Shown one piece after another: positions 1 to 53,570 of a stretch of DNA of 64,000 nucleotides. The notes under the pieces were generated by a model. It had not been told where the DNA came from. It made no database searches and worked only from the letters and a program-made list of their open reading frames with translations. The stretch comes from Protula sp. h YS-2021 (taxonomy: Eukaryota > Annelida > Polychaeta > Sabellida > Serpulidae): the NCBI GenBank assembly GCA_949752745.1, contig OX457029.1, forward strand, positions 47,112,228-47,176,227. Reading direction: 5' to 3'. How positions within the stretch are numbered: the stretch's first letter is position 1; every line of letters begins with the position of its first letter. The translations under genes were made by a program, and so were the position numbers.

Positions 1-595
1 TTTGTGAAATTCAGGTCATTATTAAGGAAATTTTCAAGCGAGATAAAAGGATTTATATTTTCTGTCCTTTTGAAATGTGCTTCACGTGTTGCCATAGTAA
101 CATAAACATTTCTTGTAAAGAAGTTGAGCTTGTTTTCATCACACTTCATCGTGTTTGTAAGCTTTTCTTGAGACGTGGCCGAACGTCAGACGGGATCTGA
201 CTCGTTGAAGTAATTATTAGTAAATACAGGACCTATAACTAATCAAAAAGAAAACAATAAAAACTAGACCAGAAATAGATATGCACAAGCATTTCTTTAA
301 AAAACTATGTTTACTCTCTTATTTTAGGGTGTACGCGAATTTGTTTCATGTTCTGACACAGTGTAACCCGCTAAGGGTCGGTCGTGTAGTTAAACAAATC
401 ATTTAACTAACTAACTTCATGCTAGATTTTAACCGTTATACTACTACTTTATATTCATTAACTCATAGTGACACATTGTAACCCGCTAAGGGATGACCGT
501 TGTATCCAGAATCACTTAGTAACTAAACAATACTGTCAGAAAATATAACCAACAAAAAGTTGGATCTCTTTTGAATTTCAGAATATAATTAAATA
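1..595. other. Left non-coding region
   Basis: No open frame of useful length is visible on either strand. The stretch is A+T-rich and lies downstream of the leftward gene run, so it probably holds the 3' ends of those transcripts. It carries one short direct repeat, listed separately. Nothing marks it as a virus end; the element probably continues to the left. Confidence 0.5.
354..492. repeat. Pair of 24-bp direct repeats
   Basis: A 24-base block containing GTGTAACCCGCTAAGGG occurs at 354-377 and again at 469-492 with one mismatch (TGACACA followed by G or T). Copy-to-copy spacing is 115 bases. The block is richer in G+C than its surroundings. It could be a protein-binding site or the remnant of a tandem array; no function is shown. 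Confidence 0.75.
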
Positions 596-1090
596 TTACT
601 TTTTTCTCTTATACATATTATTTATGAGCAGTCGTCTACATTCGTTACGTTTTTCACAAGTGTTTCTGGTAATCGTTGATTGAGATATCCACCATATCTT
701 ATTTTGTATCTCAATGAATTCACTCTTCGACGTACAACACATGCGCTTATTAGCTTGGAGTGTCATAACTGTAGCCACATCACTAAAGTAAAAGCATATA
801 CGACGGTTTGCGTGGTGTTGAAATGCTAAGTATATGGCGTTGATTATACCATATAGAACAGGTGAACAACATTTACAATCTACAACAGCCGTACCACTAT
901 ATTGTGTTTCGGGGTTCACATACGACATGTAATATACATTGTATTTTCCACCATTCTCATGTCTTATAATAATATCAACAAAAACATGTAAAACATTCTT
1001 CTCAAAGTCTTCAGCTATTTCGTGTAAAAAATCATTATCTTCGTCGTTAGGTATGTCATTTGGGTTTATAATACTCGGGTGAGTATTCAT
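596..1090 (-). CDS. Hypothetical protein, possible degenerate RNase H fold
   Basis: A 164-residue protein, last gene of the six-gene leftward run. Its ATG overlaps the stop of the preceding gene as ATGA, which argues for coupled expression and fixes the start. The N-terminus is acidic and the C-terminal tail is basic (ends YKRKK). The middle has a strand (VFVDIIIR), a helix (NAIYLAF) and a strand ending in an aspartate (CFYFSD), an order that recalls RNase H. The glutamate expected at the start of the helix is not seen, so enzymatic activity is doubtful. I do not recognise a specific family; the fold idea is weak inference. Confidence 0.75.
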   Translation of the reverse strand: MNTHPSIINPNDIPNDEDNDFLHEIAEDFEKNVLHVFVDIIIRHENGGKYNVYYMSYVNPETQYSGTAVVDCKCCSPVLYGIINAIYLAFQHHANRRICFYFSDVATVMTLQANKRMCCTSKSEFIEIQNKIWWISQSTITRNTCEKRNECRRLLINNMYKRKK

Positions 1091-1980: not shown

Positions 1981-2002
1981 TATTTTCTCCCACCCCTTTC
2001 AA

Positions 2003-2683: not shown

Positions 2684-2688
2684 CTTAA

Positions 2689-4218
2689 TTATGTTTTAAA
2701 TATAAAAGCAGGGTCAGACAGTTTATCTAATAGTGCCTCTTTCGTTGAATTATGTGTTTTATTTTTATCTGTGTGCGAATAGTCCGTTACAACATTTGAA
2801 ACATTCTGATGTAATACAGGGTTATTTCTGTTATCATTTTGTACTGATTGTTCATCTTTTGGAGAGGACTTTTCTTGGACTACGATGTCACCACCTGTTT
2901 TAACATGTCCTATTTTTTTTAGAACTGCTTCAACCACGCTTGTGATATCATTGTTTGTTAACGGCTGTACGGCTTTGTTGCTTTGTTGCCGATTAGTTTC
3001 AAGTATTTCATTAAAACTGCTCTTGAGGTTTCCTATTTCATTCTGCATCATTTTAAAAATGCTTTCTTGTTGTTTTCTACTTTTGTTACGTCGTCGTCCA
3101 CTAGTATACCCATCTCCATCGTTTGCATCTTCGTCATCCTCATCGCTTTCATTTTGCTGGTGTGCTGCACAACGTTTTCTTTTTTTGTCATTTGTGTAGA
3201 CAAACGACGGCGGAGCCAAGAAATATGGTCCGCCTGTCACTGGTACCCCTCCATACATAGGGACATTTCCTTGCGGTAGAAAAGTTGGGTAATGTTGTTG
3301 CACATTATTACCATAATTAATTTCTGGATTGTATCCCAACGGTGTCTGTAATTGTGGGCGTAATATAGGTGACTGTTCTGGTGAGGGTTTCAGTAACGCC
3401 ACCTGAGATAATGTCTTTTCAACAATTTCTTTTATTGCTTGTGTGTTACTATCAATCGGTTGTTGTTTTGGTATATTCATGGCGTCATTATTATTATCTT
3501 CTACGTTCAAGTTATAAGAAAGAGCTGTTTGTGGTATATTTAATGCCTTGTAATCACGGCGTACTTTTTCACTTTTTGACACGTTTCCTGTAGAGTGCAG
3601 AGACGCGAAGTATAAATAATATTTTTTCACGCTGTCCTCTTCATACGTATTTATATTATCATCATTATTTTCATCAATGTTTCTCACATTTGCTGCCAAG
3701 GTTACAGTATATGGGCGTGCGCCAGCGATACAGAGAGATAAATCGTTTATATTTAAGGTTTGTTCTTGATGTCCTATGCTCAGTCCTGGTAATTTATGCT
3801 GAATAGCAGATAAAGCAGTTAAATCCCAAGCATCGCTTCCTTTTTCATCCTTACCTTCCAGGAAACCATCTGAGGACTTAATGTCTTTATGCTTAAGTTT
3901 TGACCGTTCAACAGATGCATCTATCAATGACTCTATAAAAAAGTTATTATCTATGATAAAGTCTACAAATAAAACACCTTTTTTTGCAACATCTCCATTC
4001 TCTAGTGTTATATCTGTTGTACCCTCATAAAAGCGGTTAGTGTACCCAATTTTATATTTACTCTGATGACTAAGTATGACAGGTTTTTGTTTATTTCCAA
4101 TATATTGTGCGAGTTTTTTACGCGGTATTGACATGAATTGTCCATGTTTGTTTATTTCAATGTCTTCCCCATCGTCCAGTGGAGCACATATGCCTTTACA
4201 TTCGATAATTCTTTTCAT
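2689..4218 (-). CDS. Herpesvirus-type capsid maturation protease with scaffold domain
   Basis: A 509-residue assemblin-scaffold fusion (peptidase family S21). In herpesviruses this protein organises procapsid assembly in the nucleus and then cleaves itself and the scaffold. The N-terminal ~200 residues carry a candidate catalytic His (H51 in ILSHQSKYKIGYT) and Ser (S147 in KLPGLSIGH). The segment that normally holds the third catalytic residue reads NDLSLCIAGARP, where Asp (D159) stands in place of the usual His. A plausible release site of the form aromatic-x-Ala/Ser lies at A205/S206 (LYFA-SLH). The remainder is low-complexity and Gln/Asn-rich with a basic stretch (GRRRNKSRKQQ) and a short hydrophobic C-terminus (DPAFIFKT), as expected for a scaffold tail that binds the major capsid protein. 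M247 could start a scaffold-only product. The start is fixed by an ATGA overlap with the upstream gene. Confidence 0.85.
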   Translation of the reverse strand: MKRIIECKGICAPLDDGEDIEINKHGQFMSIPRKKLAQYIGNKQKPVILSHQSKYKIGYTNRFYEGTTDITLENGDVAKKGVLFVDFIIDNNFFIESLIDASVERSKLKHKDIKSSDGFLEGKDEKGSDAWDLTALSAIQHKLPGLSIGHQEQTLNINDLSLCIAGARPYTVTLAANVRNIDENNDDNINTYEEDSVKKYYLYFASLHSTGNVSKSEKVRRDYKALNIPQTALSYNLNVEDNNNDAMNIPKQQPIDSNTQAIKEIVEKTLSQVALLKPSPEQSPILRPQLQTPLGYNPEINYGNNVQQHYPTFLPQGNVPMYGGVPVTGGPYFLAPPSFVYTNDKKRKRCAAHQQNESDEDDEDANDGDGYTSGRRRNKSRKQQESIFKMMQNEIGNLKSSFNEILETNRQQSNKAVQPLTNNDITSVVEAVLKKIGHVKTGGDIVVQEKSSPKDEQSVQNDNRNNPVLHQNVSNVVTDYSHTDKNKTHNSTKEALLDKLSDPAFIFKT

Positions 4219-5498
4219 TCTGAAACTTTCTGATCTAAGAAAAATGCTATTAGGTGGCGAAAGGATGAAGAAACATATGTGTTATTTTCATGTTTAATAT
4301 AATAATTATCACCACAATAGAAGAGGGTTTCTTCTGGAACAGCATCCACGACGTCACATATATTACCTACGTTTAGGTCCTGTAGACTCGGAACACAGCA
4401 ACGTATAATTTCAACCCATACAATGCATGCATGCAGCTTTTTCCACAGCGGTACTATTATTTGTTCTAACGGTTCTGCCTTGTCTATAGTAATTGCATTT
4501 TCCATATTATCAATCATATCGATTACAGCTTCACAGCTTTCTTCACCTTGAAAAATTTGGAAGAAAACTATATCACGAAGCTGTTTTTTAGTTTCTAACC
4601 CAACACCTAAAAGAGAGTCACAAAACAGATCCAATACAGACACTGTGAAGCCATTTGGTATATGAAACCGGCTAGGTAATACTAAGCTAAAGAGGTCATT
4701 ACATAGTTTTGAGAGACGGGGACCAAATAAATCAACACGTTTTCCACGCGCGTGGTCTCGAATTCTTGTTAAATCGTGAACATCGACGGTTTGCGCAGCA
4801 GAAACACATTCGTTAAAAATATTATAATGTTCAACGGTTTCAAGACCCTGTATAAATATTTCAAATAAGATATGCTCACATGTTAGTTGGGGCGGTGTTA
4901 TAGATTTTTTAACCTTTTCAGATAAATTGTGCCTGTCTTCATCAATAATATCACGCACATCTTTATTAGAAAAATGACTATTAGACAGTTTTGTTGTTAT
5001 TTTCTTAACTTCAGTTTCAGAAAGTAATTCAGTCGAAATTTTCTGGTACATTAGTGGTGCACTTATTTCACTATCTTTATTTGCATTACTGCTATCGAAA
5101 ATCATCATCACTAATTTATGTAAGTCATTACCTAATAACCCAAATGTGTTGAAAAATATCATACTAAAACACAAAGCCTTTGTCTCTTTCGATGCCAAAG
5201 ATCGGCGATGATCTTGATCGAGAAAGGTGGCATTTATACCTATATTTTGAAGATTTTTATGATCGATAGTTTTCCTAAGAGATTCAAGTGAAGGATTTGA
5301 AATAAAATGTTCAATTTTATCAGCCGCATGCCTTACTTTCACACTATTTTGATCATTTATTCTCATACCGAAACTATTGAACCATTTTAATAAACCTTCC
5401 TTTTCTTGGTGTGTATCCCCAACAAGCGATTCATTTTGATGAATTGTACTTTTTTCGATTAATTGAGGCAATACAGTCAGTTTTAATATCTCATCCAT
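4215..5498 (-). CDS. Hypothetical protein upstream of protease
   Basis: A 427-residue, largely helical-looking protein without signal peptide or membrane segments. Its stop overlaps the ATG of the protease gene (ATGA) and its own start lies 35 bases beyond the stop of the membrane-protein gene upstream. The middle is charged (residues ~150-230); the C-terminal third is more hydrophobic with clustered cysteines (IRCCVPSL, FYCGDNYY). It lies beside the protease, so a capsid or capsid-vertex role is possible. It is too short for a typical portal protein and I see no family signature. Confidence 0.8.
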   Translation of the reverse strand: MDEILKLTVLPQLIEKSTIHQNESLVGDTHQEKEGLLKWFNSFGMRINDQNSVKVRHAADKIEHFISNPSLESLRKTIDHKNLQNIGINATFLDQDHRRSLASKETKALCFSMIFFNTFGLLGNDLHKLVMMIFDSSNANKDSEISAPLMYQKISTELLSETEVKKITTKLSNSHFSNKDVRDIIDEDRHNLSEKVKKSITPPQLTCEHILFEIFIQGLETVEHYNIFNECVSAAQTVDVHDLTRIRDHARGKRVDLFGPRLSKLCNDLFSLVLPSRFHIPNGFTVSVLDLFCDSLLGVGLETKKQLRDIVFFQIFQGEESCEAVIDMIDNMENAITIDKAEPLEQIIVPLWKKLHACIVWVEIIRCCVPSLQDLNVGNICDVVDAVPEETLFYCGDNYYIKHENNTYVSSSFRHLIAFFLDQKVSE

Positions 5499-9755: not shown

Positions 9756-12700
9756 TTACCCGTGCTTCAAACTTGGAGCTGTTTTTGCAAATTGTGAAAT
9801 AACTAACACATCGTTGGGTGCATTACCGCAATCACTTGGACTAAATATTTCACTATTTATTAGGCGTTCATCAGTAGAGTAGGTGTAAGCTACAGATAAA
9901 CCTAAAGCTGCCTGCACATCACTTGATTTTATCATATTGCGTATATTGTCTGCATAAGGTTCAATTACGTCTACATTTTTAACACATTTTGGTAAAGTAG
10001 CACTCCGTGTGAGTAGGTGTCTTTCGTCCGCATTTAATATAGGGGTGTTGTCATGTAAGTCACATAACTCTTCTAACGCTAGTGTCGTCATGCAGGGTGG
10101 AACAGAAGATTCCACGCACGTTGTTGATATGAGAAAATCTTTGTTCTTGCCCATGCGTCGTTTATTTTTCGTATACCGTGAAAAATATAAACTACCGAAT
10201 GAACTAAAATAACAGTTAGTTGTGGGCCACACTTCATTATAAAATGAAATCCAATCGTTATCCTGATCATCTCCCAAAAGGGAAATGTGGTCACTTTTAT
10301 TTATTCCTAATATTGGGTGCCCCCCATTGTTCATGTCACATCGCCCAGGTATATGAATTGGACGAACAATGGGAACAAACTCATCTGCGTAGTTCGGTTG
10401 GTTGTCTCGATTTCTTGGGGCAAAATTGTCTTCAGTACGCTTAAATGCACCAAAATGTGATTGTATTTCATTTAAATCCGCATCTGATAACTTTGTATCA
10501 TCTTTTCTCCTCAAAAACCCATTTATGTCTTTAAATTCAGATCTCCCCATGTTATCAACACTTATCACCGGTTTGTGGTCTTTATATTGTCCCCCCACTG
10601 TTCCTTCGGGAATGGGATAGAAACAAGGGGCACAGATACCCGCTGCACCAACGGTATTACGGGTTATTTGCATTTTACATGAAACGTTAAAACTAATACC
10701 ACCATTTCCCGTGTGTTCTTCATTTATGCCAGCGGGGGAAATAATTGTTTCAAGACTCTCCGGAGGAGCCACAATAATTGTATCAGAATAAATAGAACGG
10801 TATCTTAAAAAATCAACAACAAACCCCACGTGACATTTATTAGTTATCAAACCACTTAACGCTATTGGTGTTGTATAACAGAACTGCATCATCAGACTAG
10901 CCATGCGTAGGACAGGGGGTATTTCTGATTTAGAACATATAAAATGTGTGTTAGCACTCATTACAGCAGTGTCTTCCATGGAAAATAACCTGTCTTTTTC
11001 ATATATGTTAAATTCGTCCACATCATCACTCATTACAAAAACTTTATCGTCGTCAAGAAATATGCTGGTATCTTTTTCTTTCGTATTTATTGCATTTTCG
11101 TATCGTAATTTACTTCGAAGAAGAACAGGTAGTACTACATATTTTGTCACCAACCACTCGTCATACGCAGATTTTTCGTCCATACGATTCTCTCCGTGAT
11201 TGCTCGTGCATGGTTTAAACAACAGGTTTATAAAGAAAGATGGGTGACGTGTCGAAGTAAATATATTTCGAAAAGCAGTTATTAACATTCTCGCAACTCT
11301 TGCACACCCACTCACAGGGGTATTTAATGTGACTTGAGAGGGACGATTAAGATCAATTTGAATATCTGTCGGTAGACTACTGATTTCTTTGAATTTATCA
11401 TTTATTTCCTTAATGTCCTTTGGAGCCAGCCCTTGAGATAGTAACCATAAACCTTTTAAAAAGACGGGACATTCACCATGCACATAGGAGGGTATATCTA
11501 GGAAAATCCGCCTACGGCTAGCTGCAAATGTGGGATTTCCCGTAACCCGATGTGCTACAACATCAATGTGAAAAAACGGGTGCAGTTCAATAGACATTAA
11601 CATGCGTAATGCAGTCTTTGCAGAATCCGTGACGTCAGATGCGCCGCCATTATTTTTATAAAATGTTTTAAAATACTTTTTCCTGTCTGTACCTGCTGTC
11701 AATAATGACTTTAACATGTTCTTCAGTTTGTCGCCATCGTGTAGCATTTTTGTCTTGCGAACATTTTCGTTAAGAGCTATCATTAGCGGTTTAATGTGAT
11801 GCAGATGGGGGTCTAAAAAGACAGTTTTTATTTCGTTAACACCAAACTCAATTTTTTCTCTTGAAACTTGATGTAAAGATGCAAACACCGGTTTAAATGA
11901 AAAGCTAGTAGCGTAATTTTCCGAATTTTTAATAATACCGTCGCCTCCCATAACCACTCTATTAATCCATTGCGAAAGGTATGGGTGATTCGGATCTATT
12001 TCACCAGCAGTTACTCGTAGAAAGACATTTTGCTTATGAACTAAAGAAGGCGATCTTCCATATTGGTCTTCAAACTCTTGAATAGGTATATACTCTCGCG
12101 AAACATCAAATACATATGCCTTGTTGTCATCCACGTAAAACGAACAGGGTGTTCCTATTCTGTGATAGCCTAAAATGCTCTCATGAGAATGTCGGGGATC
12201 ACCGCTATCAGGTCGCTCTTTTGTTCCGCCCAGAATCGTTTGCCCCAATTCAGTTAGATTTATAAATGCCTCATTTTTTAATGCATCAAATACGTCTTCT
12301 CGCTTACCATGCTTTATAATTTCAGCTAAATAATCCCTATTTATTGTTTGTAGTGGATTGTTTGGGTAAAGTGTCCTTTTTTCTGGATCTTCGTCGCTTA
12401 AAAACACCATATCTTTATAAAAGACAGGTTTTGATGACACGAGTGTACCGTTCAATATTTGCGCGCGCAAAGGATGACTCGGTGATTGCATGTGTGATCG
12501 AAGTCTCTCACTACAAACGATAACTCCACCTAACTCATAAATAGCTCCATTTGAACCAATAATACGTGTAGTGCTTGTGCTGTAGGGTGAATATTTTGTA
12601 ACTAGTTTTTCCATTATAAACAGTAACTTGTTTATGCAATTATGAGGATCTTTTAGCAAGGCAAATGTGTTGTCGTGTATATGGCAAGCATATTCAACTG

Positions 12701-13412
12701 CAAGATGTTTTTGTAGAGAAAGGTTTTTTGTCCAGGGCGTATGGATATCGGCAAGAGTCGTAGCGAAAGTTCTGTATGTGCAAGCGAGCGCATATGGTAA
12801 AGATGCTTTCAGCAATGAAATTACAGCTTCATCTAATACACCATGTTGGATAGAGACTTTTGTCGTGTATGCCAAAGGTCCGTAAACCTTAGAAATTGCA
12901 CTTAGTATGTTATCGGCCATTATTTTATACCGCTCTGCCTGTTTTAACTCTCGACCCGTTATTTGTGTTCCAATTGGATTGATATCTAAATTTTGTTTAA
13001 TTAATTCATTTATATGCGCGACAGTTGCGGCTTCGATGCACATCTTTGTTCCCCTTTTAATCTCTTTATATCTGCGCTTTATTTGAATACTTTGTCCTGA
13101 ACGATGTATCCTGTTGTCTTGCACAACATCTGCTGGACGAATTGTAGTATATTGCACCAGATCAAAATAATTTGATTTCACACCATCAGCATATGTTATG
13201 TTGTAGACTTGACCAATGGGTGAATCGATAATAGTTTGATTGTCTTGAATAAAAACAGTTATTATGTCGTTGCAAACGTTTTTTACAGCCACTAAATGAC
13301 TGTGATCTGAAACGTTATTCCCGCAAATATTGAGCCCAGCAGCTTTAACGATCGCGTTACCAAACCAGTTCCCGGCCGGCGTAGCCTGACTACTTAGAGA
13401 ACGGTAATCCAT
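9756..13412 (-). CDS. Candidate major capsid protein
   Basis: A 1218-residue protein, the longest in the window, with no signal peptide, membrane span or enzyme motif. Its length is close to that of herpesvirus major capsid proteins (about 1,300-1,400 residues). It is uniformly globular without long repeats, and it lies in the same half of the element as the protease-scaffold gene, whose hydrophobic C-terminus would need such a partner. A tract rich in Gly, Asn and Pro near residues 900-1100 is compatible with surface loops. The assignment rests on size, composition and context, not on a diagnostic motif; another large tegument or structural protein is the main alternative. Several small frames antisense to it are shadows. 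Confidence 0.6.
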   Translation of the reverse strand: MDYRSLSSQATPAGNWFGNAIVKAAGLNICGNNVSDHSHLVAVKNVCNDIITVFIQDNQTIIDSPIGQVYNITYADGVKSNYFDLVQYTTIRPADVVQDNRIHRSGQSIQIKRRYKEIKRGTKMCIEAATVAHINELIKQNLDINPIGTQITGRELKQAERYKIMADNILSAISKVYGPLAYTTKVSIQHGVLDEAVISLLKASLPYALACTYRTFATTLADIHTPWTKNLSLQKHLAVEYACHIHDNTFALLKDPHNCINKLLFIMEKLVTKYSPYSTSTTRIIGSNGAIYELGGVIVCSERLRSHMQSPSHPLRAQILNGTLVSSKPVFYKDMVFLSDEDPEKRTLYPNNPLQTINRDYLAEIIKHGKREDVFDALKNEAFINLTELGQTILGGTKERPDSGDPRHSHESILGYHRIGTPCSFYVDDNKAYVFDVSREYIPIQEFEDQYGRSPSLVHKQNVFLRVTAGEIDPNHPYLSQWINRVVMGGDGIIKNSENYATSFSFKPVFASLHQVSREKIEFGVNEIKTVFLDPHLHHIKPLMIALNENVRKTKMLHDGDKLKNMLKSLLTAGTDRKKYFKTFYKNNGGASDVTDSAKTALRMLMSIELHPFFHIDVVAHRVTGNPTFAASRRRIFLDIPSYVHGECPVFLKGLWLLSQGLAPKDIKEINDKFKEISSLPTDIQIDLNRPSQVTLNTPVSGCARVARMLITAFRNIFTSTRHPSFFINLLFKPCTSNHGENRMDEKSAYDEWLVTKYVVLPVLLRSKLRYENAINTKEKDTSIFLDDDKVFVMSDDVDEFNIYEKDRLFSMEDTAVMSANTHFICSKSEIPPVLRMASLMMQFCYTTPIALSGLITNKCHVGFVVDFLRYRSIYSDTIIVAPPESLETIISPAGINEEHTGNGGISFNVSCKMQITRNTVGAAGICAPCFYPIPEGTVGGQYKDHKPVISVDNMGRSEFKDINGFLRRKDDTKLSDADLNEIQSHFGAFKRTEDNFAPRNRDNQPNYADEFVPIVRPIHIPGRCDMNNGGHPILGINKSDHISLLGDDQDNDWISFYNEVWPTTNCYFSSFGSLYFSRYTKNKRRMGKNKDFLISTTCVESSVPPCMTTLALEELCDLHDNTPILNADERHLLTRSATLPKCVKNVDVIEPYADNIRNMIKSSDVQAALGLSVAYTYSTDERLINSEIFSPSDCGNAPNDVLVISQFAKTAPSLKHG

Positions 13413-14104
13413 ACTGGTGTGGTTGTGCGTTGGTTTTACTATTTCTTGTCCGACTGTTTTGTCCCTCCTTTTTTTCAGAAGTGTATGTGTCTATAATGTA
13501 TATATATACGTATGTATATCACACACAGATGCTGCTTTGTGCCCAATCAGTGTAGTGCCTGTTTCTGTAATAATGAAAAAAAAATGTCTGTTGAAATAGA
13601 ATATTTGTTCTAATTTTTTTGGTTAAACAATAAAATACCTGCAACACGTGTACACATATATATGTATATGCTTAAATATATACGTATATATATCACGCAC
13701 CCCCTACAGCCTCTCAACACTATAAAATCTGGGGGTTTTTTATTTTCTATTTATTTATTTACTTATTTTGGAGGGGTGTGTGGGTTGTATTTTTACATTT
13801 TTCCCTGTTGCAACAAATATGGATTTTATGCATCAGAAATGAAAACAATCTGTGGATGATGCCAAAGTGTTGTTACAGAAAATATACTAGCACGAACCAT
13901 AGGGTGGGCATAAACTAGTCGGTAGTGAAGCGAGTGGCAATGTTCGCTGTCCATAAAAAACCTCAACCCGTACGAAAGGAAAGCATTTGACGAACGTCAC
14001 CTTCAGCATAAACAAACAAAATCAATGAGATAGCTCAAGTTAACGCCAGGGACTGATACGACATTTGCTTTACGGTAATTTTTTTTACGCTTGTACTTTA
14101 AGCA
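13413..14104. promoter_or_regulatory. Divergent intergenic region with TA-rich tracts
   Basis: It separates the start of the leftward capsid candidate from the start of the rightward primase, so promoters for both should lie here. It contains two short alternating TATATACGTAT-type tracts (near 13498-13520 and 13655-13695) that resemble each other. No convincing gene is present; the two short frames are low-complexity. Confidence 0.5.
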
Positions 14105-17100
14105 ATGGGAAAAATTAGATTTAACCAAGAGGTTCTATTTGGACGAGCCATCTTAACATGTCAGTACTTGCAGCTTCTATCAACAAATTTCCAGGCTTTT
14201 CGTAACGACGTGCGAGCACAGAAAATTGATTTAAATATGAGTTACTATTTTTGTTTACCGACTTTCGATAACAAAGACTACAAAACAGGTTGGGTAAATA
14301 CCGTTAAAAAACCATCATGTGTGGTTTTATTAGAAAGTGTTTTTTCATATGCAATGTTTAATACTCAAACGACATTTATAGGAGTATTATATGTATATGG
14401 TGAGAGGAGAGACGATATTTTAAACTCTTGTACTTTTACAAATCAAGATATCATAGACGAAGTGGTCGATATCACTTGGTTTCCGCAAAGCTATGTCCTA
14501 GGCATTGAGACAAAGTCTAATTTTACTTTTGAAGATCTCTGGGCTATATGCATGAAGACGCCCATCTACAGCGGACCACCAGTGGGTAACTGTCATATGT
14601 ACATTAGTAAGTGGCATGTGCTTGACGTAATGACAAAATTTTATGAAAAAAATAAAATGGATACTGTATATGGTGGAATTGGACGTAAATTACATTTCAT
14701 TGAGAGAATATGGTTATTTTTTCACATACATTGGAGATGGCCGAGGGACGATAACTTAGGGAAAAAAGCTGTTACACAGATTATTAATACTCTAGAGGCT
14801 CCATTTCAGATAAACGAGCTTATGATGTCACCAACAGATAATGTGGTAAAATTTGAACATAACACTGAAATGCTAATGTTGACAGTCACTAATCAATCTT
14901 ATGTTGAAAAAATGGAGCATGCCTATCTAGAGATGTGTAGGCGTTTTCAGATATCAGTATCACATTTCAAAAGTTTGTTGTTTGATTCAATGGAATCAGT
15001 ACGCCAAATATTCAACCCATTCCCCTTGTACATCTCACTTCAGTTGAAAACTTTCACAGAGGATTCGATTAATGCATTAGACGCTGAAATAACTAAATGC
15101 CGCGAAATAAAAAAATGGTGTAAAAATAGGCAAGCTATACTAAATGCTACATTTAACAAGGACCGGATTTATAACAGTGTATACGAAAATGCTGAAACAG
15201 AAATGGTAAAAAATGAGTTTCTTCGCCTTTATGGTAACTTTAATTCATACATCAATTACATTGACTCAAACGGAGAGATAATGATGTGGACGGTGGAGAA
15301 ATTAGGCAAATTACATGCCTCTGATTCTTCAGCTTCTTTACCACTGTATGGAATGCACGACTTGAATGCTGCACAGCTACCCATTTTTTATGGCACACCT
15401 TTCTCGCTTAAAACTGTTCGCTTATCGGAAGCCCATGCATTTTGTACTCCAATATGGATGCGTCGATCATCGGAAGGGCCAACATATTATCGGATAGCAC
15501 CACTCAACGGACGAAAGAGGAAAAACGATGATGTGGTTGGTAGTGTCGATGAATTGATTTCCTCATATATGATTACACAAGATGAAAAATGTAGAGGGCA
15601 AACACATGAGTATTTAAATAGTGGTATGCATTGGTCATCTTTCATATGTGACATAGACCTTTATGTACCTGAAGGTACAGTTATACCTGACGTTAATGCT
15701 GTATTTCGAGATGTTATTCAATCTTTTAATTGGGTTTTTTCATCTATTTTCCCTTCTCATACACCTAGGCGACACATGATTTTTATGTCACAAGATTCAC
15801 TAACCACTAGTAACAAAAAATTAGGAATACACCATCATGTCCAGCTACCCACTGGAATGGTTTTCACAAGCCGGACTTGTCGTGAACTTGCTTATGTCTT
15901 AAATTCTGTACGCCATCGTTTCCCCGATACAATCGGCTTAAATTCAAACAAATGTAGTGGGAATGACCGTGTGTATGATGTCGGCATATATCCACAAACT
16001 CAAAATAGTCAGTTTTCAGGTCATTGTTTGAGATCTCCTTTTCAAGTAAAGCCCGACGGCACAGGTCAGCTTAAATTGGTTTATGTGTTACCTCCTTTAG
16101 AATGTCCCCTAACTGCTCTAGATCTAACTGCCCATGGTCCACAGTTTGATGACGATGGGAAGCGCATTATTTTTGGAAATGTAGTGGAATCTATACATAA
16201 TATATCGCATATTGACGATCTATCCTTCTTTTCGCGCTATCAGAAAAGTACTGTAAACAGATCAATGATTAACAGATCTAAAACATTTGTTGTAGACATA
16301 ATGACAGAAATAAACACAAAAACACACATTTTTGACATAAATCATGATTCCAATAGACTTTTAAGAGTTATAAACGAATTGTGGCAGAAATACGGCAAAA
16401 CTGACATGATTTACTTTTTACAAGAAGCCGTCGGCACTCAAGGTCAAACATATCCACGTGCTTTTTTAAATGAAATAGGAAGTCACTCACATTTTCGCAT
16501 GTATCAAAACGAAGTTACCCTGGCTGTACGAAATAATGTGTTACTTCGGCAGTGTTTTAAAAAACCCCACAGAAAACCCAAAACGCTGTCGATACGCGTA
16601 AAGATAGGTTTTTCTAGAAGAATGATTTCTTTCAGGCTGTTTCAAACACACTGTTTTAAAACATCATGTAATGAATTTAGTAGTGGAGATGAGATCTTAC
16701 CACAAATAGGCTTACGCGCAGAAAAAATCTTCTGGGCAAATTTTATAATTCGCGAGTTTCGCGACTTTCTGAGTAACTTTAAATCCCCAAAGACACGTGT
16801 AAAAGAAATACAGGTAGATACCGTTTGTGAAGTTGTTCACGATAGTCGAGGTGTAAATTTATATATGACAGAAATGGACATATCGCGGTGTGTGAAACAT
16901 CTGTTCATGTTTCTCCCGTTTAATACTCCCCCTTGTAGTTTTTTCTTAACAAGTCATAACGACTATATAGGGTGTGTAATGTTGGAATGTAATATCCCGT
17001 TTGTTATAAAATCTCAAAGCAAAGAAGGGCTACTGATGTACGTCAAAAATCATAATTTGTTATCACAACCGCTTCTAGAGTCGTTGGTCAATGTCACAGC

Positions 17101-31654: not shown

Positions 31655-31762
<108 letters not shown>

Positions 31763-38160: not shown

Positions 38161-38345
38161 TGCTTTCACGTCAAAATGTGTTCGGCCTTCAGCCAAGGTA
38201 TCTCTGCAAAAACAACTTATCAATTACAACTAAATATAGCTGCCCCCTTTCCTCCATTCATCAACCGCATTTGCTGATTTCTATGGCAAACGCATAACTA
38301 TAAATCTCGTATATTTTCCACATATGTATCGTCAAAAATAGTTTT
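38161..38345 (-). pseudogene. Decayed gene-A fragment, copy 3
   Basis: Same segment and deletion. It is very close to copy 4, including its flanks, so these two arose by a recent tandem duplication of roughly 670 bases. Confidence 0.6.
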
Positions 38346-38830: not shown

Positions 38831-39020
38831 TTGCTTTCACGTCAAAATGGGTTCGGCCTTCAGCCCATGTAACTCCACAAAGGCAACTTATCAATTACAA
38901 CTAAATATAGCTGCCCCCCTTTCCTCCATTCATCAACCGCATTTGCTGATTTCTATGGCAAACGCATAACTATAAATCTCGTATATTTTTCCACATATGT
39001 ATCGTCTAAAAAAATAGTTT
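38831..39020 (-). pseudogene. Decayed gene-A fragment, copy 4
   Basis: Same segment and deletion. Nearly identical to copy 3 over the block and the following A+T-rich sequence. Confidence 0.6.
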
Positions 39021-39499
39021 TTTTACATTTTGCATATTCTTTTCTTGCAAAAGAACGCAATGACCTTAATAAAATCCCTTTTCTAACAACAGTTACATTT
39101 TTTTGCCCACACAGACGTGATTTCAGTCTATCAGAAAAAAATAAAAGTTGGTCCCCTTTTGGTAATTTAAATCATTTCTTACTAAACTACTCGATGACAC
39201 TTAAAACAAAATACATTTTGTAAATACGTGGATTCGCCAAACATGGTTTTTGCGTTGCATTTTTACTATTCCTTTTCTTACATAAAAGTACTCGATGACC
39301 CCCTACAAAAATATCTTTCTAACAACAGTTACATTCCTTTCCCAAATAATCTACTAAAACATTTCGGTCCGTTTTGGTATTTTACTTATTTCTTGCTAAA
39401 AAAAGTACTGAATGACCCTATGAAAAAACCCCATTTTGCAATAACAGAAAAAAAGGAGAAACATGTAAGAACTTTCTTGTTTTCTATTTGTTTTACTTT

Positions 39500-39751
39500 T
39501 TTTGAATTTCCCGCGCTTTGCTCGCTTTAAAAAACTGGGGTCTTACTATGTATGTGTTTCGGCAGTGGTGGATGTGGTTATGATACTCTATATTTATATA
39601 TTGATATTTATGTAGTTAAATAAGTACTTAAAATACTTAAAATACACAAAGTACAAACAAAAGAGTATCATAACCACATCTACCACTGCCAAAACACATA
39701 CATAGTAAGACCCCAGTTTTTTAAAGCGAGCAAAGCGCGGGAAATTCAAAA
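39500..39751. repeat. Large inverted repeat (90-bp arms, A+T-rich loop)
   Basis: Left arm 39500-39589 and right arm 39662-39751 are reverse complements with about two mismatches. The arms contain TTTCCCGCGCTTTGCTCGC and GGGGTCTTACTATGTATGTG. The ~72-base loop is almost pure A+T (TTTATATATTGATATTTATG). A long palindrome around an A+T-rich centre is the layout of several herpesvirus replication origins; a MITE-like element is the alternative. No coding sequence crosses it. Confidence 0.85.
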
Positions 39752-40375
39752 ATAAAATAGAAATGTATTTTTTATTCTACAAAGTAGCAAAACAGATGCA
39801 TATTGTGATGTATGTAGAAAAGAGAAATATTGATGATATGTAGCAACTTTTTTTAGGGGGGGGAAAGTAAGTTTGTAAAGCAAATCATAAGCATATATAT
39901 ATAAATTGGTTATTGCGGAACAAAGATTTAGTTGTATGTAGAAAAAATGAAATATTGATGATATGTAGCAATTTTTCTAGGGAAAGAAAGTTGTGTAAAG
40001 CAAACTCGTATACATGTATATAAATTTGCAATTGCAGAACAAAGGTGAGATAATATCGATAACAAGAAGCGGTGAAACATTTATGGATTTGTTTGTTGTT
40101 ATTCTAAATATTCTGTAATGTAGAATCATATGGGAAGAATATTTTATAAGAAAGACGCGCAATACATATCTGACTTGTTTTTTTCTTTAGCGAAATTAAT
40201 AAAATTGTCTTTTATGCCAAAGAAACGCAATAAAAAAACCACAAGGAGTGGGAGGAGAAAATCACCATGGAATAAGTGATTAGGTCAAGAATTCAATCAA
40301 ATTATTTTAGGTACTTGTTATTACCGGCAGAAGTAGTACACGGGACTAGTACTTGAACAAATACACTGGTATGTA
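39752..40375. other. A+T-rich spacer with short repeats
   Basis: It contains repeated copies (about 39780-39870 and 39930-40010) of a ~70-base block including GTAGAAAA-GAAATATTGATGATATGTAGCA, also present near 35755-35830. It ends at the start of the spliced WRNIP1-like gene and should include its promoter. No gene seen. Confidence 0.5.
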
Positions 40376-46666: not shown

Positions 46667-47249
46667 CGGATGGCACGGGAAAGAAGACTTTTTACAATGT
46701 ATATGAAGTGTAAGTAAGCTTCTAATTATTTTTTTTTAATTTACGAAAGCATTAAATCGTAAAAAAACCCCGACGAACAGGCTTTACAGTTCTTGCTTAG
46801 AGTCTGAACGTGTGACATCTCTAAAATTGAATTGTGGCAGCTCATCTTTTACTCGATTTACTAAATTTACCAAAAAAAACCCAAAAAAGAAAAAAGTCTG
46901 AATTATTGATTTTCCTGACATATCGTAACTAGTTAGGCTATATATTTGGTTGCTACTGGCTGATGATCGAACATGGGAAAGGGGAAAAACATAACACGGA
47001 ATCAATATCAGGAGCTGATGTGTGATGGATTTTTTTTCCGATATTACAGAAAACTGGTGAATGGTGGAAATCATCAGATATCGCAGTAGCTGTTGTAGAG
47101 TTCAAACAGAAAACAAAAACACTCTTGAATATAACAGAAACAGAAACTTGCTGGAAAATCTAACAACATCCAAGAGAAAACACTTTTTTTGTGGGCAAGG
47201 GAGGATACTTACAGTGACTGAAATTGTTTGCTGTTGCTCGTATTAAACA
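46667..47249. other. Intergenic region upstream of second fusion glycoprotein
   Basis: A+T-rich with no convincing gene on either strand. It probably carries the promoter of the glycoprotein gene. Confidence 0.5.
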
Positions 47250-49130
47250 ATGACTTACCTAGCCGTGACACTCGCCGTTGTGTTTGGCCATGTGCTAAGG
47301 GCGTTTGGTAGTCACTCGCCTACGGGAATATATTTCCTCTACGAAAATGCCGCTTACGCATCTTACAGCTCGTGGGTATTAACATATACTCTTGACTTAA
47401 ACCCATATCGCACGCACCTACACGAAACGTTAGTGGAAATTAAGAATTTCGAAGAAGCTATACAGACTTTGAATGAACAAGTTCCGACCTATGTTAACGA
47501 GGCGCATGGTAACTTATTCCAGTATATACGTCGGGAAATGGTGTACCTATTGAAACAAGAATATAATCAATTTATCCAGGAATATGAAACTATCGGTGTG
47601 TTGTTTGACGAAATTGGAGCTTTAACCACCAAATACAACACATACCAAACGAGGCCTGTGTTGGCGACAGGCGGTAACCTACTTAATTTCTTATTTGCAA
47701 CAGCAACGCAGCATAACGTTAACGAATTACGTCAAGTTATAAGTAACGTTGGGTCACGACAAGAACAACTAGTTAATCTCGTTAGCCACAGTGTAACATT
47801 ACTAAACAAAACTAACACTCACGCTCAAATAAATCGCAACGCCATAGAAAAATTATCTAACGCCACAAGAAGGTTACATCGACAACTAATGTATCTATAT
47901 GATGAAGCGTCACTAGCGTTTTTCCCTGATAGAACTTACACCATGTTTGTATCAAGGTTGCAGGCTATTTTTAACATTGTTACAGCTTCCATAAGGCAAA
48001 TCCGTTTAAATATTGTTGATCTTTTTTCTCAAATTCATTTATCAATTCAAGGTCAGTTATCACCTATTTTAATCAGCCCAACAGAACTTAGAGATATACT
48101 TGAATATATTAACTTACAAATATCTGGAAAGTATAAACTACCTTTCCCTCTTACAGAAGACGGCTTATTGATGTACTATAAATTTATACACCCATCTGTT
48201 GTCCCAATTCAAGATGGCTTCCACATTGTCGTGGCATTACCTTTATTACATGTAGATAAACAGTTTGATATATATCGAGCTATTCAAGTGCCCACGCCAG
48301 ATGGTCAACTGCAGTTAGGTGCAACCTATCTTCTAGAATCTGACTATTTTGCACTATCGAAAGATGAAAGTTACTTTGCATTTATACAGCCAGAAGAATT
48401 TTTGCCGTGCATATCGGGTCCCGCATGCAAAATTGCTTCTCCCTGGTACAATGTGATTTCGTACCCTACTTGTTTATTGTCCCTATTTCTGAGAAACAAG
48501 CATAGAATTAAACAATTCTGCCATAAAAAGGTTTCGAGTTTCCCACCCGTACCTGTCGTTAAGTATGTATTTGAAGGATTTTGGCTCATTTCTACTGCAT
48601 TCAAGTTTAATTTGAGTATAAAATGTCCAAATAATACGCGACAAGTTGAAATTTCAAATGTTCACCTCATCCCAATTGAAAACAATTGTTCGGCTACCTC
48701 AAAATACTTTAAATTTCCCACTCGAATCGTAGCCTCATCTGAAGAACAACAACTAAAACTCAATGCCGAGTTATCGTTTGCGAAATTTACCCCTGATAAA
48801 TGGAACAATGAAGAAGATAGGTCATTTAACCATACGTATGAAACCATCCTATTTGAACGTCGTAAGGCCGAACACAAACGATTAAAGCACTTTAAACAAA
48901 TCCTTCCAACGTTAACTGAACCGATGGCGAAACCTCATAAACTGTCAAACCATGTAACTTTTATGCTAATTGCACTTTTGTTTCTAAATGTGGTGATATT
49001 GGGTGGTGCCGGGATATTCATTACATTTGTTTGCTATCGTAAACGTTGTAATAAACCAAGATTGTTGCCAATTATTCGAGTGCAACGCGAACGTAAACGT
49101 TCTGTAAACGAGCATTCGGGGGCAAAATGA
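47250..49130 (+). CDS. Second F/Env-like fusion glycoprotein, no clear furin site
   Basis: A 626-residue type I membrane protein. Residues 1-20 form a signal peptide; a membrane span lies near 575-600 (MLIALLFLNVVILGGAGIFI) before a basic tail of about 25 residues. It has the F/Env layout: a Gly/hydrophobic segment (GGNLLNFLFATA, 141-152) followed by a long helix, then the sub-family strand pattern (LRDILEYI, FHIVVALPLLHVDKQF, IYRAIQVP) and a Cys-rich distal part. The bases before the hydrophobic segment encode TRPVLAT, with no R-x-x-R site, in contrast to the first glycoprotein. Uncleaved F-like relatives are known in baculoviruses and as domesticated insect genes. It may be a fusion-inactive partner, a receptor-interference factor, or use another protease. 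Confidence 0.75.
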   Translation: MTYLAVTLAVVFGHVLRAFGSHSPTGIYFLYENAAYASYSSWVLTYTLDLNPYRTHLHETLVEIKNFEEAIQTLNEQVPTYVNEAHGNLFQYIRREMVYLLKQEYNQFIQEYETIGVLFDEIGALTTKYNTYQTRPVLATGGNLLNFLFATATQHNVNELRQVISNVGSRQEQLVNLVSHSVTLLNKTNTHAQINRNAIEKLSNATRRLHRQLMYLYDEASLAFFPDRTYTMFVSRLQAIFNIVTASIRQIRLNIVDLFSQIHLSIQGQLSPILISPTELRDILEYINLQISGKYKLPFPLTEDGLLMYYKFIHPSVVPIQDGFHIVVALPLLHVDKQFDIYRAIQVPTPDGQLQLGATYLLESDYFALSKDESYFAFIQPEEFLPCISGPACKIASPWYNVISYPTCLLSLFLRNKHRIKQFCHKKVSSFPPVPVVKYVFEGFWLISTAFKFNLSIKCPNNTRQVEISNVHLIPIENNCSATSKYFKFPTRIVASSEEQQLKLNAELSFAKFTPDKWNNEEDRSFNHTYETILFERRKAEHKRLKHFKQILPTLTEPMAKPHKLSNHVTFMLIALLFLNVVILGGAGIFITFVCYRKRCNKPRLLPIIRVQRERKRSVNEHSGAK

Positions 49131-50554: not shown

Positions 50555-51154
50555 TTACGAGAAATGTGTCTGTATACCATAGGTTGCTATAAAAATCCAC
50601 ATAACTACACTCTTTATGTCATCACTCCATTCATTTAATGCCTTACTAAATGCTTCGTCCATATCAAATTGATCTCCCGGTAGATTTCTCTTGCGACATT
50701 CTCTTAACACATCTCGAACAATATTTTGTTTTGAGATTTTCTTAAGTCCAAGTTCATACGTGTCAGTGAAGTGTTGCCACCAAATACGTAGACTTTGATA
50801 AGGAAATGTTAATTTTATATGTATAGCAAAACAGTCCTTAAATATGTCTTCCATAGCTCTGTATATAAATACCCTCGCAACTAATCTTTTCATTTCAAAT
50901 ATCCACTCTTTATTTATTTTTCTAAATGCATTACTTATGTTAAATTCGTCTCCAGGTAAACCACGCTTTTTACATTCTTCTAAAAACCAATAAGTTATCT
51001 CTTTTTTCGGAAGGAATAAACACTCGTCAATCCATCTGGCATTCAGTTCTTTACGCCATTGCTTTCTGGTCCGTTTAGAATCAATTTTTAAGAACATATG
51101 CGCAGCACACCACTGTCTAAACAATTTTGCCATTTCTTGCTCTGCCTTGTCCAT
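50555..51154 (-). CDS. Repeat-domain family protein E (2 units)
   Basis: A 199-residue protein, shortest of the family, comprising two complete units and almost nothing else. Unit 1 is about residues 6-100 (LFRQWCAAHMFL, NARWIDEC, ECKKRGLPGDEF, AFRKINKEW) and unit 2 about 102-195 (IFKDCFAIHIKL, DTYELGLKKIS, ECRKRNLPGDQF, AFSKALNEW). The two LPGD-[EQ]-F turns and the EC-[RK]-K-R boxes show a recent internal duplication. It lies upstream of no other family member and beside the recombinase, which reads the same way. Function unknown. Confidence 0.85.
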   Translation of the reverse strand: MDKAEQEMAKLFRQWCAAHMFLKIDSKRTRKQWRKELNARWIDECLFLPKKEITYWFLEECKKRGLPGDEFNISNAFRKINKEWIFEMKRLVARVFIYRAMEDIFKDCFAIHIKLTFPYQSLRIWWQHFTDTYELGLKKISKQNIVRDVLRECRKRNLPGDQFDMDEAFSKALNEWSDDIKSVVMWIFIATYGIQTHFS

Positions 51155-51266
51155 CTTTTGTTTTGCCTTTTATTTGTGTGTGTGGCCTGTGCGTTCTGTC
51201 ACAGTAATGTACATATTTCACTTTTGTTTTGGTCTAAATATAACAAACAACATCAATGTATTATTA

Positions 51267-53570
51267 CTAGTCCGCCGATTTTCGTGCCCGTTTTATCGTG
51301 TTTCGTACCATGTTAACAATTTGGCTGTCAGATTTCACGCGGAACAAACCACTACTGTCGTGAAACAAACCAAGAATGTCTTCCTTTTTAATTGGTAGCT
51401 TGTCCGCTATACGACTTTTAATATAATCCCCTGCTACATTCAAAACAGATTTCCTTATGAAACGAGATACATCTTGTATTTCATTTTCACATGATGGAAA
51501 CATACATGAGACCTGTTTCACATCGGCGTCTTTTAACGCATACTTATCGACACTACATTTATCAGCACCATACTTTTGAACAATACCACTTATATCTTCT
51601 AAGATAACACGACAATCCTGAATATACTCATCTGTGCAGAACTGACGACTTGCGTGATCAGATTTTTTAATTATTTTCCTTTCCGGAGATGAGAATTCAC
51701 ATTTCACGTGTTTTGCCTTAGACATACATTCATGATCTGTATTATCTCTGGGAGTGTTAATTTTACGTTTGACACTTCGTGCTATAACTGATGTGGGTAT
51801 TTCTACATCTTGTTGTGAAGGAGCTGGTGCTTTTTGCGTCGTTGGCGTTTTTGTATTTGTACTCGTACTTCGTTCACCTTCAACTATAGATGCGTTTGCA
51901 TTCTCACTACCTCTACTGTCCACACTGTTGCCACATTCTCGTGGACCTTCAAACCCCTCTACTTCGTCTTCAGCCAGAGCTGAATTTATTAACTTTTGCA
52001 CGGTAAAGTATGTGTCTACACTGCTCTGTTCTTTACCAGACACGTCATAATACGTCGACGCCGTTTCTAATGAGTGATCCATGTGACACGCGAGTTTACT
52101 TCTATCCTCGTGTGGCATTCCGTCTTTTTCTGCTGCCGAGACCAGGCATTTCCGTACCAGTCCGCTAGTTATTTTGTTGCGGGGCCCTAACTCTTCACTA
52201 CAAAACTGTTGCCACGCCTTGTTCATGAAAAAATTCGCATCACTGGACAATAACGCTGTCCCCTTTTCCCACGCAAAGAGAAAAGATTTCATTTCGTTAC
52301 TCCGGCTTTCATAGTTCGGTAAACTTGGTACGACTACTGAAATCCATTTTCTTAATGTTTCTAAGAAATAAGGTGCCATAAAAATGTGTGCATTACCATA
52401 GGCTAAAGATGTCTTGTGTTGAACTTTACTGATAAGTACCACACCTTCCCCATCTTTACCTCGCAGGCTGCGCGCGTTTCCCAGGTCTTCTTTTGTTAAG
52501 GTAACAATAACTCCGACACGTTTAGCGTTCAAACACTGTAGGGCTAGAATTAGATGGCTTTGGTAGAGTGCGTACTCATGTGACGCGACTTTGTCTGTAT
52601 CCTTGAATGCGTTTATAGCGCAGATTGTGCGGTGTAAATGGGCGCTGTTAAGGTATCTGGCAATATCCGCATAGGTTATATCGCCACCACCGACTGCTGT
52701 TGCCAGTTTCTTTTTCTGTGACGCCTGCTCTGTTTTACTCTCCTTTATTAACGTTTTTAAAGTGTTTGTTTGCGCCATTGTCCATTCGTCTAACTCTTTC
52801 GTTGTTATCTCGGGATACAATGACCTGTTTAAACGCAGATGTCGCACAAAGTTTATCATAGATACACAGTGATTCTTTATGGTAGAATACATGTAGTGCT
52901 CACGTAGAAGGTCCATAATGCCGCCATTTTCAGCCGGCAGCGTCCATACCCGCAGCAATTTCAAGTCACTAGTTGTAAATGACCGATCTTTAAAAACAAA
53001 TTCTGTAATCTTCTTCACTTGATTGCCCATCTGATTAATCTGTTGCTGTTTTTGTTTTCTGGCCTGTGACGGATAATTCACATCTATAAATTTGCCTCCT
53101 TCGGATGTACTCAGCCACTGCTTGAAACGAGCTATGACGTCATCAAGTGCTTGTGACGGTGTCGTAATAACAGTGCTACTATCAAGAAGGTCAGCAGACG
53201 CATACATATCCTTTCGAACGGCTTCATCGAGTTCAGAATGGTTTCGCTTTAAATGCATATCAAGCCGCCGCCCTTTCCATACACAGTTTTCTACAGGACA
53301 TATGCGACACGCATAAACGCGTTTTCCTTCACTCGCAATATTACTCTTTCGAAACGTTTTCAGTGCGTCCTGAATCTGGTCTTCGGAAAATTTCGCATGG
53401 ACGACTGTCTTAGTGCGCAAATGACGACACATCGACCACTTTCCGATTACCGCTGGACATCCTTCCAGGGGACACGCCATTTTTGATGCCGGATTTTTGC
53501 AAGGTCGATAACGGGTCGGTACATTGAGCCTTTTCTTCGGAATTTCCTCTCGTCCCTCTTTTTCCGCCAT
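51267..53570 (-). CDS. Zinc-finger tyrosine recombinase (integrase-like)
   Basis: A 767-residue protein. Two C2H2-type fingers lie near residues 33-58 (CPLEGC) and 88-111 (CPVENC...H106...H111). A core-binding helical region (about 180-300) is followed by the catalytic domain with R351 (LNAKRVGVIVTL), K386 (QHKTSL), R473 (SGLVRKCLV), H496/H499 (CHMDHSLETAS) and the nucleophile Y507 or Y508, so the R-K-R-H-Y set is complete. A Ser/Thr/Lys-rich tail with a nuclear-localisation-like KRKIN follows. Such proteins cut and rejoin DNA through a tyrosine bond; related eukaryotic proteins belong to Crypton-like elements. Base composition is richer in G+C than the neighbouring viral genes, suggesting separate origin. 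It sits at the border with host-like DNA. Confidence 0.8.
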   Translation of the reverse strand: MAEKEGREEIPKKRLNVPTRYRPCKNPASKMACPLEGCPAVIGKWSMCRHLRTKTVVHAKFSEDQIQDALKTFRKSNIASEGKRVYACRICPVENCVWKGRRLDMHLKRNHSELDEAVRKDMYASADLLDSSTVITTPSQALDDVIARFKQWLSTSEGGKFIDVNYPSQARKQKQQQINQMGNQVKKITEFVFKDRSFTTSDLKLLRVWTLPAENGGIMDLLREHYMYSTIKNHCVSMINFVRHLRLNRSLYPEITTKELDEWTMAQTNTLKTLIKESKTEQASQKKKLATAVGGGDITYADIARYLNSAHLHRTICAINAFKDTDKVASHEYALYQSHLILALQCLNAKRVGVIVTLTKEDLGNARSLRGKDGEGVVLISKVQHKTSLAYGNAHIFMAPYFLETLRKWISVVVPSLPNYESRSNEMKSFLFAWEKGTALLSSDANFFMNKAWQQFCSEELGPRNKITSGLVRKCLVSAAEKDGMPHEDRSKLACHMDHSLETASTYYDVSGKEQSSVDTYFTVQKLINSALAEDEVEGFEGPRECGNSVDSRGSENANASIVEGERSTSTNTKTPTTQKAPAPSQQDVEIPTSVIARSVKRKINTPRDNTDHECMSKAKHVKCEFSSPERKIIKKSDHASRQFCTDEYIQDCRVILEDISGIVQKYGADKCSVDKYALKDADVKQVSCMFPSCENEIQDVSRFIRKSVLNVAGDYIKSRIADKLPIKKEDILGLFHDSSGLFRVKSDSQIVNMVRNTIKRARKSAD

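What the first reader, a model, noticed from the sequence alone, without database searches (positions are those of the whole stretch)
1..53570. Herpesvirus-like element with a tyrosine recombinase next to host DNA
Herpesvirus-type protease-scaffold and primase genes share a contiguous stretch with a complete tyrosine recombinase at one edge, beyond which the DNA looks cellular (dead hAT, SINE, spliced gene). The known precedent is Teratorn in fish, a herpesvirus fused to a piggyBac transposase; a recombinase-bearing version in an invertebrate would be a different solution to genome integration.
Basis: partly seen in the sequence, partly recalled or inferred. Interest (0 to 1): 0.9.

Follow-up and report, generated by a model that had tools for sequence, protein, structure and literature searches.

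The report
Herpesvirus-like provirus with recombinase gene
An animal-type chromosome carries a huge herpesvirus-like insertion, found more than once in the genome and ending at the same right-hand base in every copy read, with a gene that resembles an integrase beside that end, which suggests a herpesvirus relative able to insert itself into chromosomes.

Summary
The window holds the right 55 kb of a herpesvirus-like provirus. The element runs at least 90 kb left of base 1 and ends at window base 54947, 1.4 kb beyond the recombinase gene. A second copy with open frames lies on C4, a decayed one on C2, smaller remnants elsewhere. Herpesvirus nature is firm from genes left of the window: terminase (Pfam 3e-14; solved herpes terminase 5e-14) and family B polymerase. 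In-window capsid, primase and protease-scaffold calls are weak or motif-only. The right end is exact: of 28 loci reaching it, 23 were read, all stop at the same base, with 14 flanks. The recombinase is probably a real zinc-finger tyrosine recombinase: R, K, R, H, Y are kept in a relative 38% identical there, and a profile's best solved match is an integrase (E 0.0063); yet Pfam, a single-sequence PDB search and direct comparison with phage and DIRS recombinases gave nothing. That it makes the insertions is inferred; a fixed linear viral end joined by repair is the main rival. The left end is unresolved. Open-access searches listed no herpesvirus with such a gene. New variant of a known kind (Teratorn, endogenous nimaviruses).

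The parts
51267..53576 (-). Recombinase gene, 769 aa stop to stop: two C2H2-like zinc fingers (aa 33-58, 88-111), then a domain with R351, K386, R473 (G470 where HxxR would have His), H496/H499, Y507/Y508 (catalytic roles assigned by eye)
   Evidence: own-genome copies at 99%, 98% (cut short), 92% and decayed
54548..54947 (.). Right terminal 400 bp of the element; exact end at 54947 (...GGTGTTTCCCCAGACC)
   Evidence: 28 loci reach the end, 23 read, 14 different flanks
9756..13490 (-). Major capsid protein candidate, 1244 aa (weak Herpes_MCP match)
   Evidence: E 0.0036, below cut-off; two matches in the genome, C6 and C4, none in the decayed C2 copy
14102..17110 (+). Primase candidate, 1002 aa; ICDIDL motif
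   Evidence: no family or PDB match of note
2689..4281 (-). Protease-scaffold candidate, 530 aa: assemblin-like LPGLS / SLCxxG motifs (recalled) then a low-complexity tail
   Evidence: sequence; no match
17400..19514 (+). Membrane glycoprotein candidate, 704 aa, with coiled coil, RRKKR site and C-terminal hydrophobic stretch (by eye)
   Evidence: sequence; weak hits only
24579..25592 (+). Nucleoside/nucleotide kinase candidate (GCVAAGKST P-loop, by eye)
   Evidence: searches (AAA_28 0.023; thymidylate kinase PHROG 0.17): weak
29703..30143 (+). NADAR domain protein, 146 aa
   Evidence: E 4.2e-21
30326..31624 (+). Phytanoyl-CoA dioxygenase-like protein, 432 aa; also in the C4 copy and in the C2 and C5 remnants
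   Evidence: (E 0.00093, below cut-off)
47247..49130 (+). Baculovirus F-like envelope fusion protein, 627 aa
   Evidence: E 1.7e-16
50555..51169 (-). 204-aa frame next to the recombinase, by eye of the same repeat-module family as the frames at 33922, 42954, 44334, 45764; matching DNA persists beside the recombinase in decayed copies
34158..40206 (.). Repeat-rich, mostly non-coding stretch with copies elsewhere in the element
54948..64000 (.). DNA right of the element (host); many-copy repeat near 55052-55247

Best explanation
This is the right part of an endogenous herpesvirus-like element, about 145 kb or more, that has inserted repeatedly into the host genome. SHOWN: herpesvirus terminase and family B polymerase left of the window; copies on three different chromosome-scale contigs with the same gene order, two of them with open frames in the genes sampled; a right end fixed to the base at many sites; the recombinase-like gene close to that end in all three copies. 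INFERRED: the gene is an active tyrosine recombinase with N-terminal zinc fingers; it acts at a site at this end of a circular (or circularised) viral genome and joins it to host DNA with little sequence preference, so that the virus lives as a provirus, much as temperate phages and the endogenous nimaviruses do.
For: Terminase: DNA_pack_C 3e-14, solved herpes tripartite terminase subunit 3 at 5e-14. Polymerase: DNA_pol_B 6.8e-26 plus exonuclease domain; 13 metagenomic relatives without organism name at 33-47%. Copies: of 11 pieces of C6 fetched between 47022228 and the window, 10 have a colinear C4 match at 93% or more; the exception, L027, lies in a repeat zone; the first 0.4 kb from 47021797 match at 93%, and so does the recombinase end of the window at 98.7%. 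Decayed C2 copy with left-side DNA, polymerase, dioxygenase, envelope gene, recombinase and right end in the same order. Right end: all 23 loci read, of 28 that reach it, stop at the same base, with 14 different flanks. Recombinase: R, K, R, H, Y kept in a relative at 38% in this domain; profile best PDB match is an integrase, E 0.0063, over the catalytic domain; with the catalytic part alone that integrase was the only hit up to E 10 and aligns box by box, but at E 0.55 and not significant as a domain. Genes of C6 and C4: about 258 synonymous against 247 nonsynonymous changes in 13,887 codons, rough ratio 0.28 (25 of 32 pairs summed).
Against: No Phage_integrase Pfam match; the single sequence has no PDB match up to E 5; no signal against seven phage integrases and two DIRS recombinases beyond shuffled controls; AlphaFold models of no use. 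The His of HxxR is replaced by G/S. The left end is not located: the point first taken as the left end is not shared as an end by the copies, so no pair of ends, no core repeat and no empty site was shown. Some remnants keep only the last tens of bases (35 bp at C2:63.53M, 88 bp at C2:82.47M), which a linear end joined by repair would also give. The C2 copy has no capsid match. Not every gene is conserved: the RING-protein pair has 27 nonsynonymous against 7 synonymous changes.
Confidence: 0.68

Rival explanations
1. The fixed right end is simply the physical end of a linear viral genome, captured by host break repair; the recombinase-like gene has another role (for example resolving genomes) and does not integrate the virus.
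For: Only one end is shown to be fixed; some remnants carry just the last 35-88 bp; the left side is repeat-rich and variable, as herpesvirus termini often are (recalled).
Against: The recombinase gene is next to the fixed end in the three long copies. All 23 ends read are exact to the base, while repair usually trims ends (recalled).
Confidence: 0.18
2. The recombinase and right end are a separate Crypton-like transposon that jumped into, or beside, the viral genome; the many right-end copies belong to it and not to the virus.
For: Distant recombinase relatives exist in this genome with no viral gene recognised in what was scanned; C1:78.34M holds only part of the recombinase and the right end.
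Against: 6 of 7 loci with long recombinase matches also carry element DNA inward of the gene (window 49.4-51.2 kb, envelope, dioxygenase or 44.9-45.8 kb); no common inner boundary between 50.5 and 51.3 kb was seen in those loci; the arrangement is the same in C6, C4 and old C2.
Confidence: 0.1
3. Assembly chimera or viral contamination joined to host sequence.
For: None found.
Against: Long copies at three places with different right flanks, plus degraded remnants.
Confidence: 0.02

Closest known systems
Teratorn (herpesvirus fused with piggyBac transposon, fish; PMC10175614 and PMC5822658, passages read; PMC5601938 seen in a search listing only)
   Same: Endogenous herpesvirus-like element in an animal genome with a recombination enzyme gene, several copies
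   Different: Teratorn uses a DDE transposase of piggyBac type; here a tyrosine-recombinase-like gene, and none of 14 right flanks begins with TTAA
Endogenous nimaviruses of crustaceans with tyrosine recombinases (PMC10871703, abstract and passages)
   Same: Large endogenous DNA virus carrying a tyrosine recombinase with a C2H2 zinc-binding domain
   Different: Nimaviruses, not herpesviruses; they target telomere repeats or 28S rDNA, while the 14 flanks here show no common target by eye
BelcheriHV-1, integrated malacoherpesvirus of lancelet (PMC12373286, passages)
   Same: Herpesvirus-like genome of about 150 kb integrated in an animal chromosome between repeat-rich regions
   Different: The words recombinase and integrase do not occur in that paper's main text; its relation to this element could not be tested (no sequence held)
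Acipenserid herpesvirus 3, compared there with HHV-6 (PMC12031113, passages)
   Same: Chromosomally integrated herpesvirus genomes
   Different: Those have telomere-like terminal repeats; none is seen at this right end
Crypton and other eukaryotic tyrosine recombinase elements (recalled; named in PMC10871703)
   Same: Mobile element with a tyrosine-recombinase-like protein
   Different: Cryptons are small and carry no virus genes (recalled)

Membership tests
Herpesvirales | Herpesvirus-type terminase (ATPase/nuclease) | tested here: met
   (gene lies left of the window; read in the C4 copy); weak terminase PHROG
Herpesvirales | HK97-fold major capsid protein of herpes type | tested here: inconclusive
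   E 0.0036, 43 residues, below cut-off; no PDB match up to E 5
Herpesvirales | Assemblin protease-scaffold | tested here: inconclusive
   motifs recalled; negative
Herpesvirales | Family B DNA polymerase with 3'-5' exonuclease | tested here: met
   the profile also reaches herpes polymerase chains, with polymerase delta scoring higher
Malacoherpesviridae | Clusters with OsHV-1/HaHV-1 in polymerase or terminase trees | not testable with these tools
   no reference sequences found in the tools; IMG/VR scans found no relatives
Tyrosine recombinase superfamily | Ordered catalytic residues R-K-HxxR-H/W-Y | tested here: met
   His of HxxR replaced by G/S, the other five kept; assignment by eye
Tyrosine recombinase superfamily | Statistically significant profile match | tested here: inconclusive
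   positive: (E 0.0063); negative: Pfam, PDB single sequence, PHROGs, hhalign, controls; E 0.55
Teratorn / piggyBac-herpesvirus fusions | piggyBac transposase and TTAA target | tested here: not met
   no such domain among the 31 window frames and 19 left-hand frames scanned (genes in unfetched gaps and smaller frames not scanned); no TTAA start at 14 right flanks
Telomere-integrated herpesviruses | Telomere-like repeats at the integration end | tested here: not met
   right end and flanks, by eye; left end not located, so not tested there
Endogenous Nimaviridae with tyrosine recombinase | Nimaviral core genes; insertion in telomere repeats or 28S rDNA | tested here: not met
   no common target in 14 flanks by eye; core genes are of herpes type

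The most novel reading that the evidence does not exclude
A lineage of animal herpesviruses carries its own tyrosine recombinase as integrase and lives a temperate, lambda-like life: it inserts at a fixed site of its own genome and nearly at random in the host, is inherited through the germ line, and keeps its capsid, packaging, replication and envelope genes under selection between insertions.
Probability: 0.5. Interest if true: 0.9.

Novelty: new variant of a known kind. Interest (0 to 1): 0.78.

Why it matters
Herpesviruses normally persist as episomes; known integrators use telomere homology or, in fish, a borrowed piggyBac transposase. A recombinase-type integrase would be a third, independent route, parallel to the endogenous nimaviruses and to temperate phages, and would suggest that such herpesviruses are a reservoir of giant mobile elements in animal genomes. 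Two open-framed copies and an old one in one genome make insertion, selection and decay directly comparable.

Tried and rejected
Left terminus at C6:47021797: first taken as an end because C6 and C4 both start matching there; rejected after C10, C2 and C4 were found to carry matching DNA further left; C4 seems to have a host-type repeat inserted there. Empty-site search with joined C6 flanks: no empty site found, and the left half was probably element DNA, so the test says nothing; the C4 version did not complete. Homologues of recombinase and capsid protein in 5.8 billion proteins: none. IMG/VR scans with capsid protein, terminase, polymerase profile and recombinase profile: none. Phage records: none for the capsid protein. 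PDB with the single recombinase sequence: none up to E 5. AlphaFold on the whole recombinase and on its catalytic part: pLDDT 37 and 38, so no fold search was made. hhalign with an alignment of seven phage integrases and two DIRS recombinases (the recombinase profile is very shallow, Neff 1.37) and a local HMM test with shuffled controls: no signal. The 132 Phage_integrase rows of the host (143 of 463 candidates scored) do not include this gene; the five loci looked at look like DIRS-type recombinases by eye. Interior sides of three right-end remnants: no BLAST match to the held element pieces, though one resembles the element end of another copy by eye. Host identity: not determined.
Full report
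Where it lies. The window is C6:47112228-47176227 of an unnamed 863-Mb genome. Stop-to-stop frames show many long genes up to about 53.6 kb, sparse only between about 35 and 43 kb; GC is 32-39% to 52 kb and 37-42% beyond.

Herpesvirus nature. Inside the window the evidence is modest: a 1244-aa protein with a weak Herpes_MCP match (E 0.0036, below cut-off), a primase-like frame with one recalled motif, and a 530-aa frame that looks like protease-scaffold by recalled motifs only (negative). The firm evidence lies left of base 1, because the element continues there. In the C6 copy a 1669-aa family B polymerase has E 6.8e-26. In the C4 copy a 499-aa frame matches the herpesvirus packaging protein at 3e-14 and solved herpes terminase subunit 3 at 5e-14. 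Thirteen metagenomic polymerases without organism name are 33-47% identical over the polymerase region, so relatives exist in nature. With the polymerase profile the best solved chains are polymerase delta, with herpes polymerases further down.

Copies. The capsid candidate gave two matches in the genome, on C6 and C4, differing by one nonsynonymous change. Of 11 pieces of C6 fetched between 47022228 and the window, 10 have colinear C4 matches at 93% or more; L027 lies in a repeat zone and matches only in repeats. From C6:47021797 to the right end at C6:47167174 is about 145.4 kb; the same span on C4 is about 142.1 kb. A third copy on C2 is decayed: left-side DNA at 79732858, polymerase in pieces with stops, dioxygenase, envelope gene, recombinase pieces and right end at 79922737; it has no capsid match. 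C5:23.84-23.85M is a shorter remnant with dioxygenase and recombinase; C4:91.31M has envelope gene, recombinase and right end. Synonymous divergence between C6 and C4 gene pairs varies from 0 to 0.09, which I read as a sign of mosaic or recombining viral ancestors rather than a recent duplication. I summed 25 of 32 pairs, leaving out seven short, partial or overlapping frames: 258 synonymous and 247 nonsynonymous changes in 13,887 codons, rough dN/dS 0.28 with an assumed 0.68 synonymous sites per codon. One clear exception is a RING protein (7 synonymous against 27 nonsynonymous).

The right end. A search with window 54548-54947 gave 57 rows from 40 of 70 candidates, so counts are lower bounds; 28 rows reach the last four bases. 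I read 23 of those 28 across the end: window, L010, L012 and L015 and 19 short stretches. All 23 stop at the same base, after ...CAGACC or a variant of a base or two. Ten share one flank (TACAAGCAATAG) and count as one insertion that was later amplified; the other 13 flanks differ, so 14 flanks in all. By eye they show no common target, no TTAA and no telomere repeat.

The left end is not known. The start shared by C6 and C4 at 47021797 looked like an end, but the DNA left of it in C6 recurs beside decayed left-end copies on C10, with one weak partial match on C5, C2 joins left-end DNA to another piece of that stretch, and matches between C2, C4, C6 and C10 go on further left. So the element has a repeat-rich left margin whose edge was not reached. 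No empty site or core repeat is shown.

The recombinase. The gene at 51267-53576 (-) has two C2H2-like fingers and a domain with R351, K386, R473, H496/H499 and Y507/Y508 (roles by eye). A relative in a 1837-aa frame on C7 is 32% identical over 551 aligned columns and 38% in the catalytic part, with these residues kept. A profile of the family has as best of 177,635 solved sequences an integrase (3nkh, E 0.0063); with the catalytic part alone that is the only hit up to E 10, though only at E 0.55, and the boxes align in order. Against this: no Pfam, PHROG, single-sequence PDB, hhalign or local HMM signal and no usable model. I hold it for a divergent tyrosine recombinase at about 85%, a judgement.

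Is it part of the virus? Of seven loci with recombinase matches above 50% identity over more than 300 residues, six keep element DNA inward of it; the seventh is cut within the gene. In the three long copies it lies next to the fixed end. This argues against a stray transposon and for a viral gene, and its place beside the only exact end is why I favour integration by this enzyme. A linear viral end joined by repair remains open (about 18%).

Literature. Searches for herpesvirus with tyrosine recombinase, Crypton, integrase, malacoherpesvirus and endogenous elements list no herpesvirus with such a gene as far as titles and abstract starts show; passages of six papers were read (searches cover five; the sixth, PMC5601938, was seen in a listing only, so five were read). 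This covers open PMC papers only, and a key paper on invertebrate herpesviruses in sequence data (10.3389/fmars.2023.1159754) is not held. Endogenous nimaviruses with tyrosine recombinases (PMC10871703) are the nearest precedent for the enzyme, Teratorn for the virus, and the integrated lancelet herpesvirus for an integrated malacoherpesvirus-like genome.

Verdict. A real, repeated herpesvirus-like provirus, partly with open frames, with a recombinase-like gene at a precise end: new variant of a known kind; the mechanism is inferred.

Noticed in passing
window 47247-49130: Besides copies of the element, the envelope F-like protein has 65 further rows of relatives in the host genome (28-64% identity; 70 of 444 candidates scored), many in open frames of about 650-700 aa, perhaps envelope genes of retroelements (not tested).
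   Followed up: partly
C1:59.99M (L052), C1:6.34M (L053) and others: A piece of the recombinase (aa 362-501) recurs at eight places in frames of 169-180 aa and a shorter part (to aa 461) at three more; in the two opened, frames resembling a reverse transcriptase lie nearby (by eye); ten right-end copies share one flank.
   Followed up: partly
C10:38.43-38.76M (L083, L094): A cluster of seven decayed copies of the left part of the element.
   Followed up: partly
window 29703-30143 and 30326-31624: NADAR domain gene and a phytanoyl-CoA dioxygenase-like gene side by side in the element; a 57% relative of the latter lies at C6:55922827.
   Followed up: partly
window 33922-34953, 42954-43940, 44334-45293, 45764-46666, 50555-51169: Proteins that by eye are built of repeated modules with spaced F/W residues, with no family match of note in Pfam.
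   Followed up: no
window 34158-40206 and C6:47049228-47052227: Repeat-rich zones that match each other at about 75-90% in both orientations, perhaps replication origins or terminal repeats.
   Followed up: no
C7:32411500-32421499 (L048): An 1837-aa frame with repeated N-terminal parts and a recombinase domain 32% identical to the viral one; no Pfam match in it.
   Followed up: partly
C2:82465096-82465183 (L070, L098): An 88-bp right-end remnant with the same 22-bp sequence GTAAGTGTGGTAACAATTCATT on both sides, a few tens of bases away (by eye).
   Followed up: no
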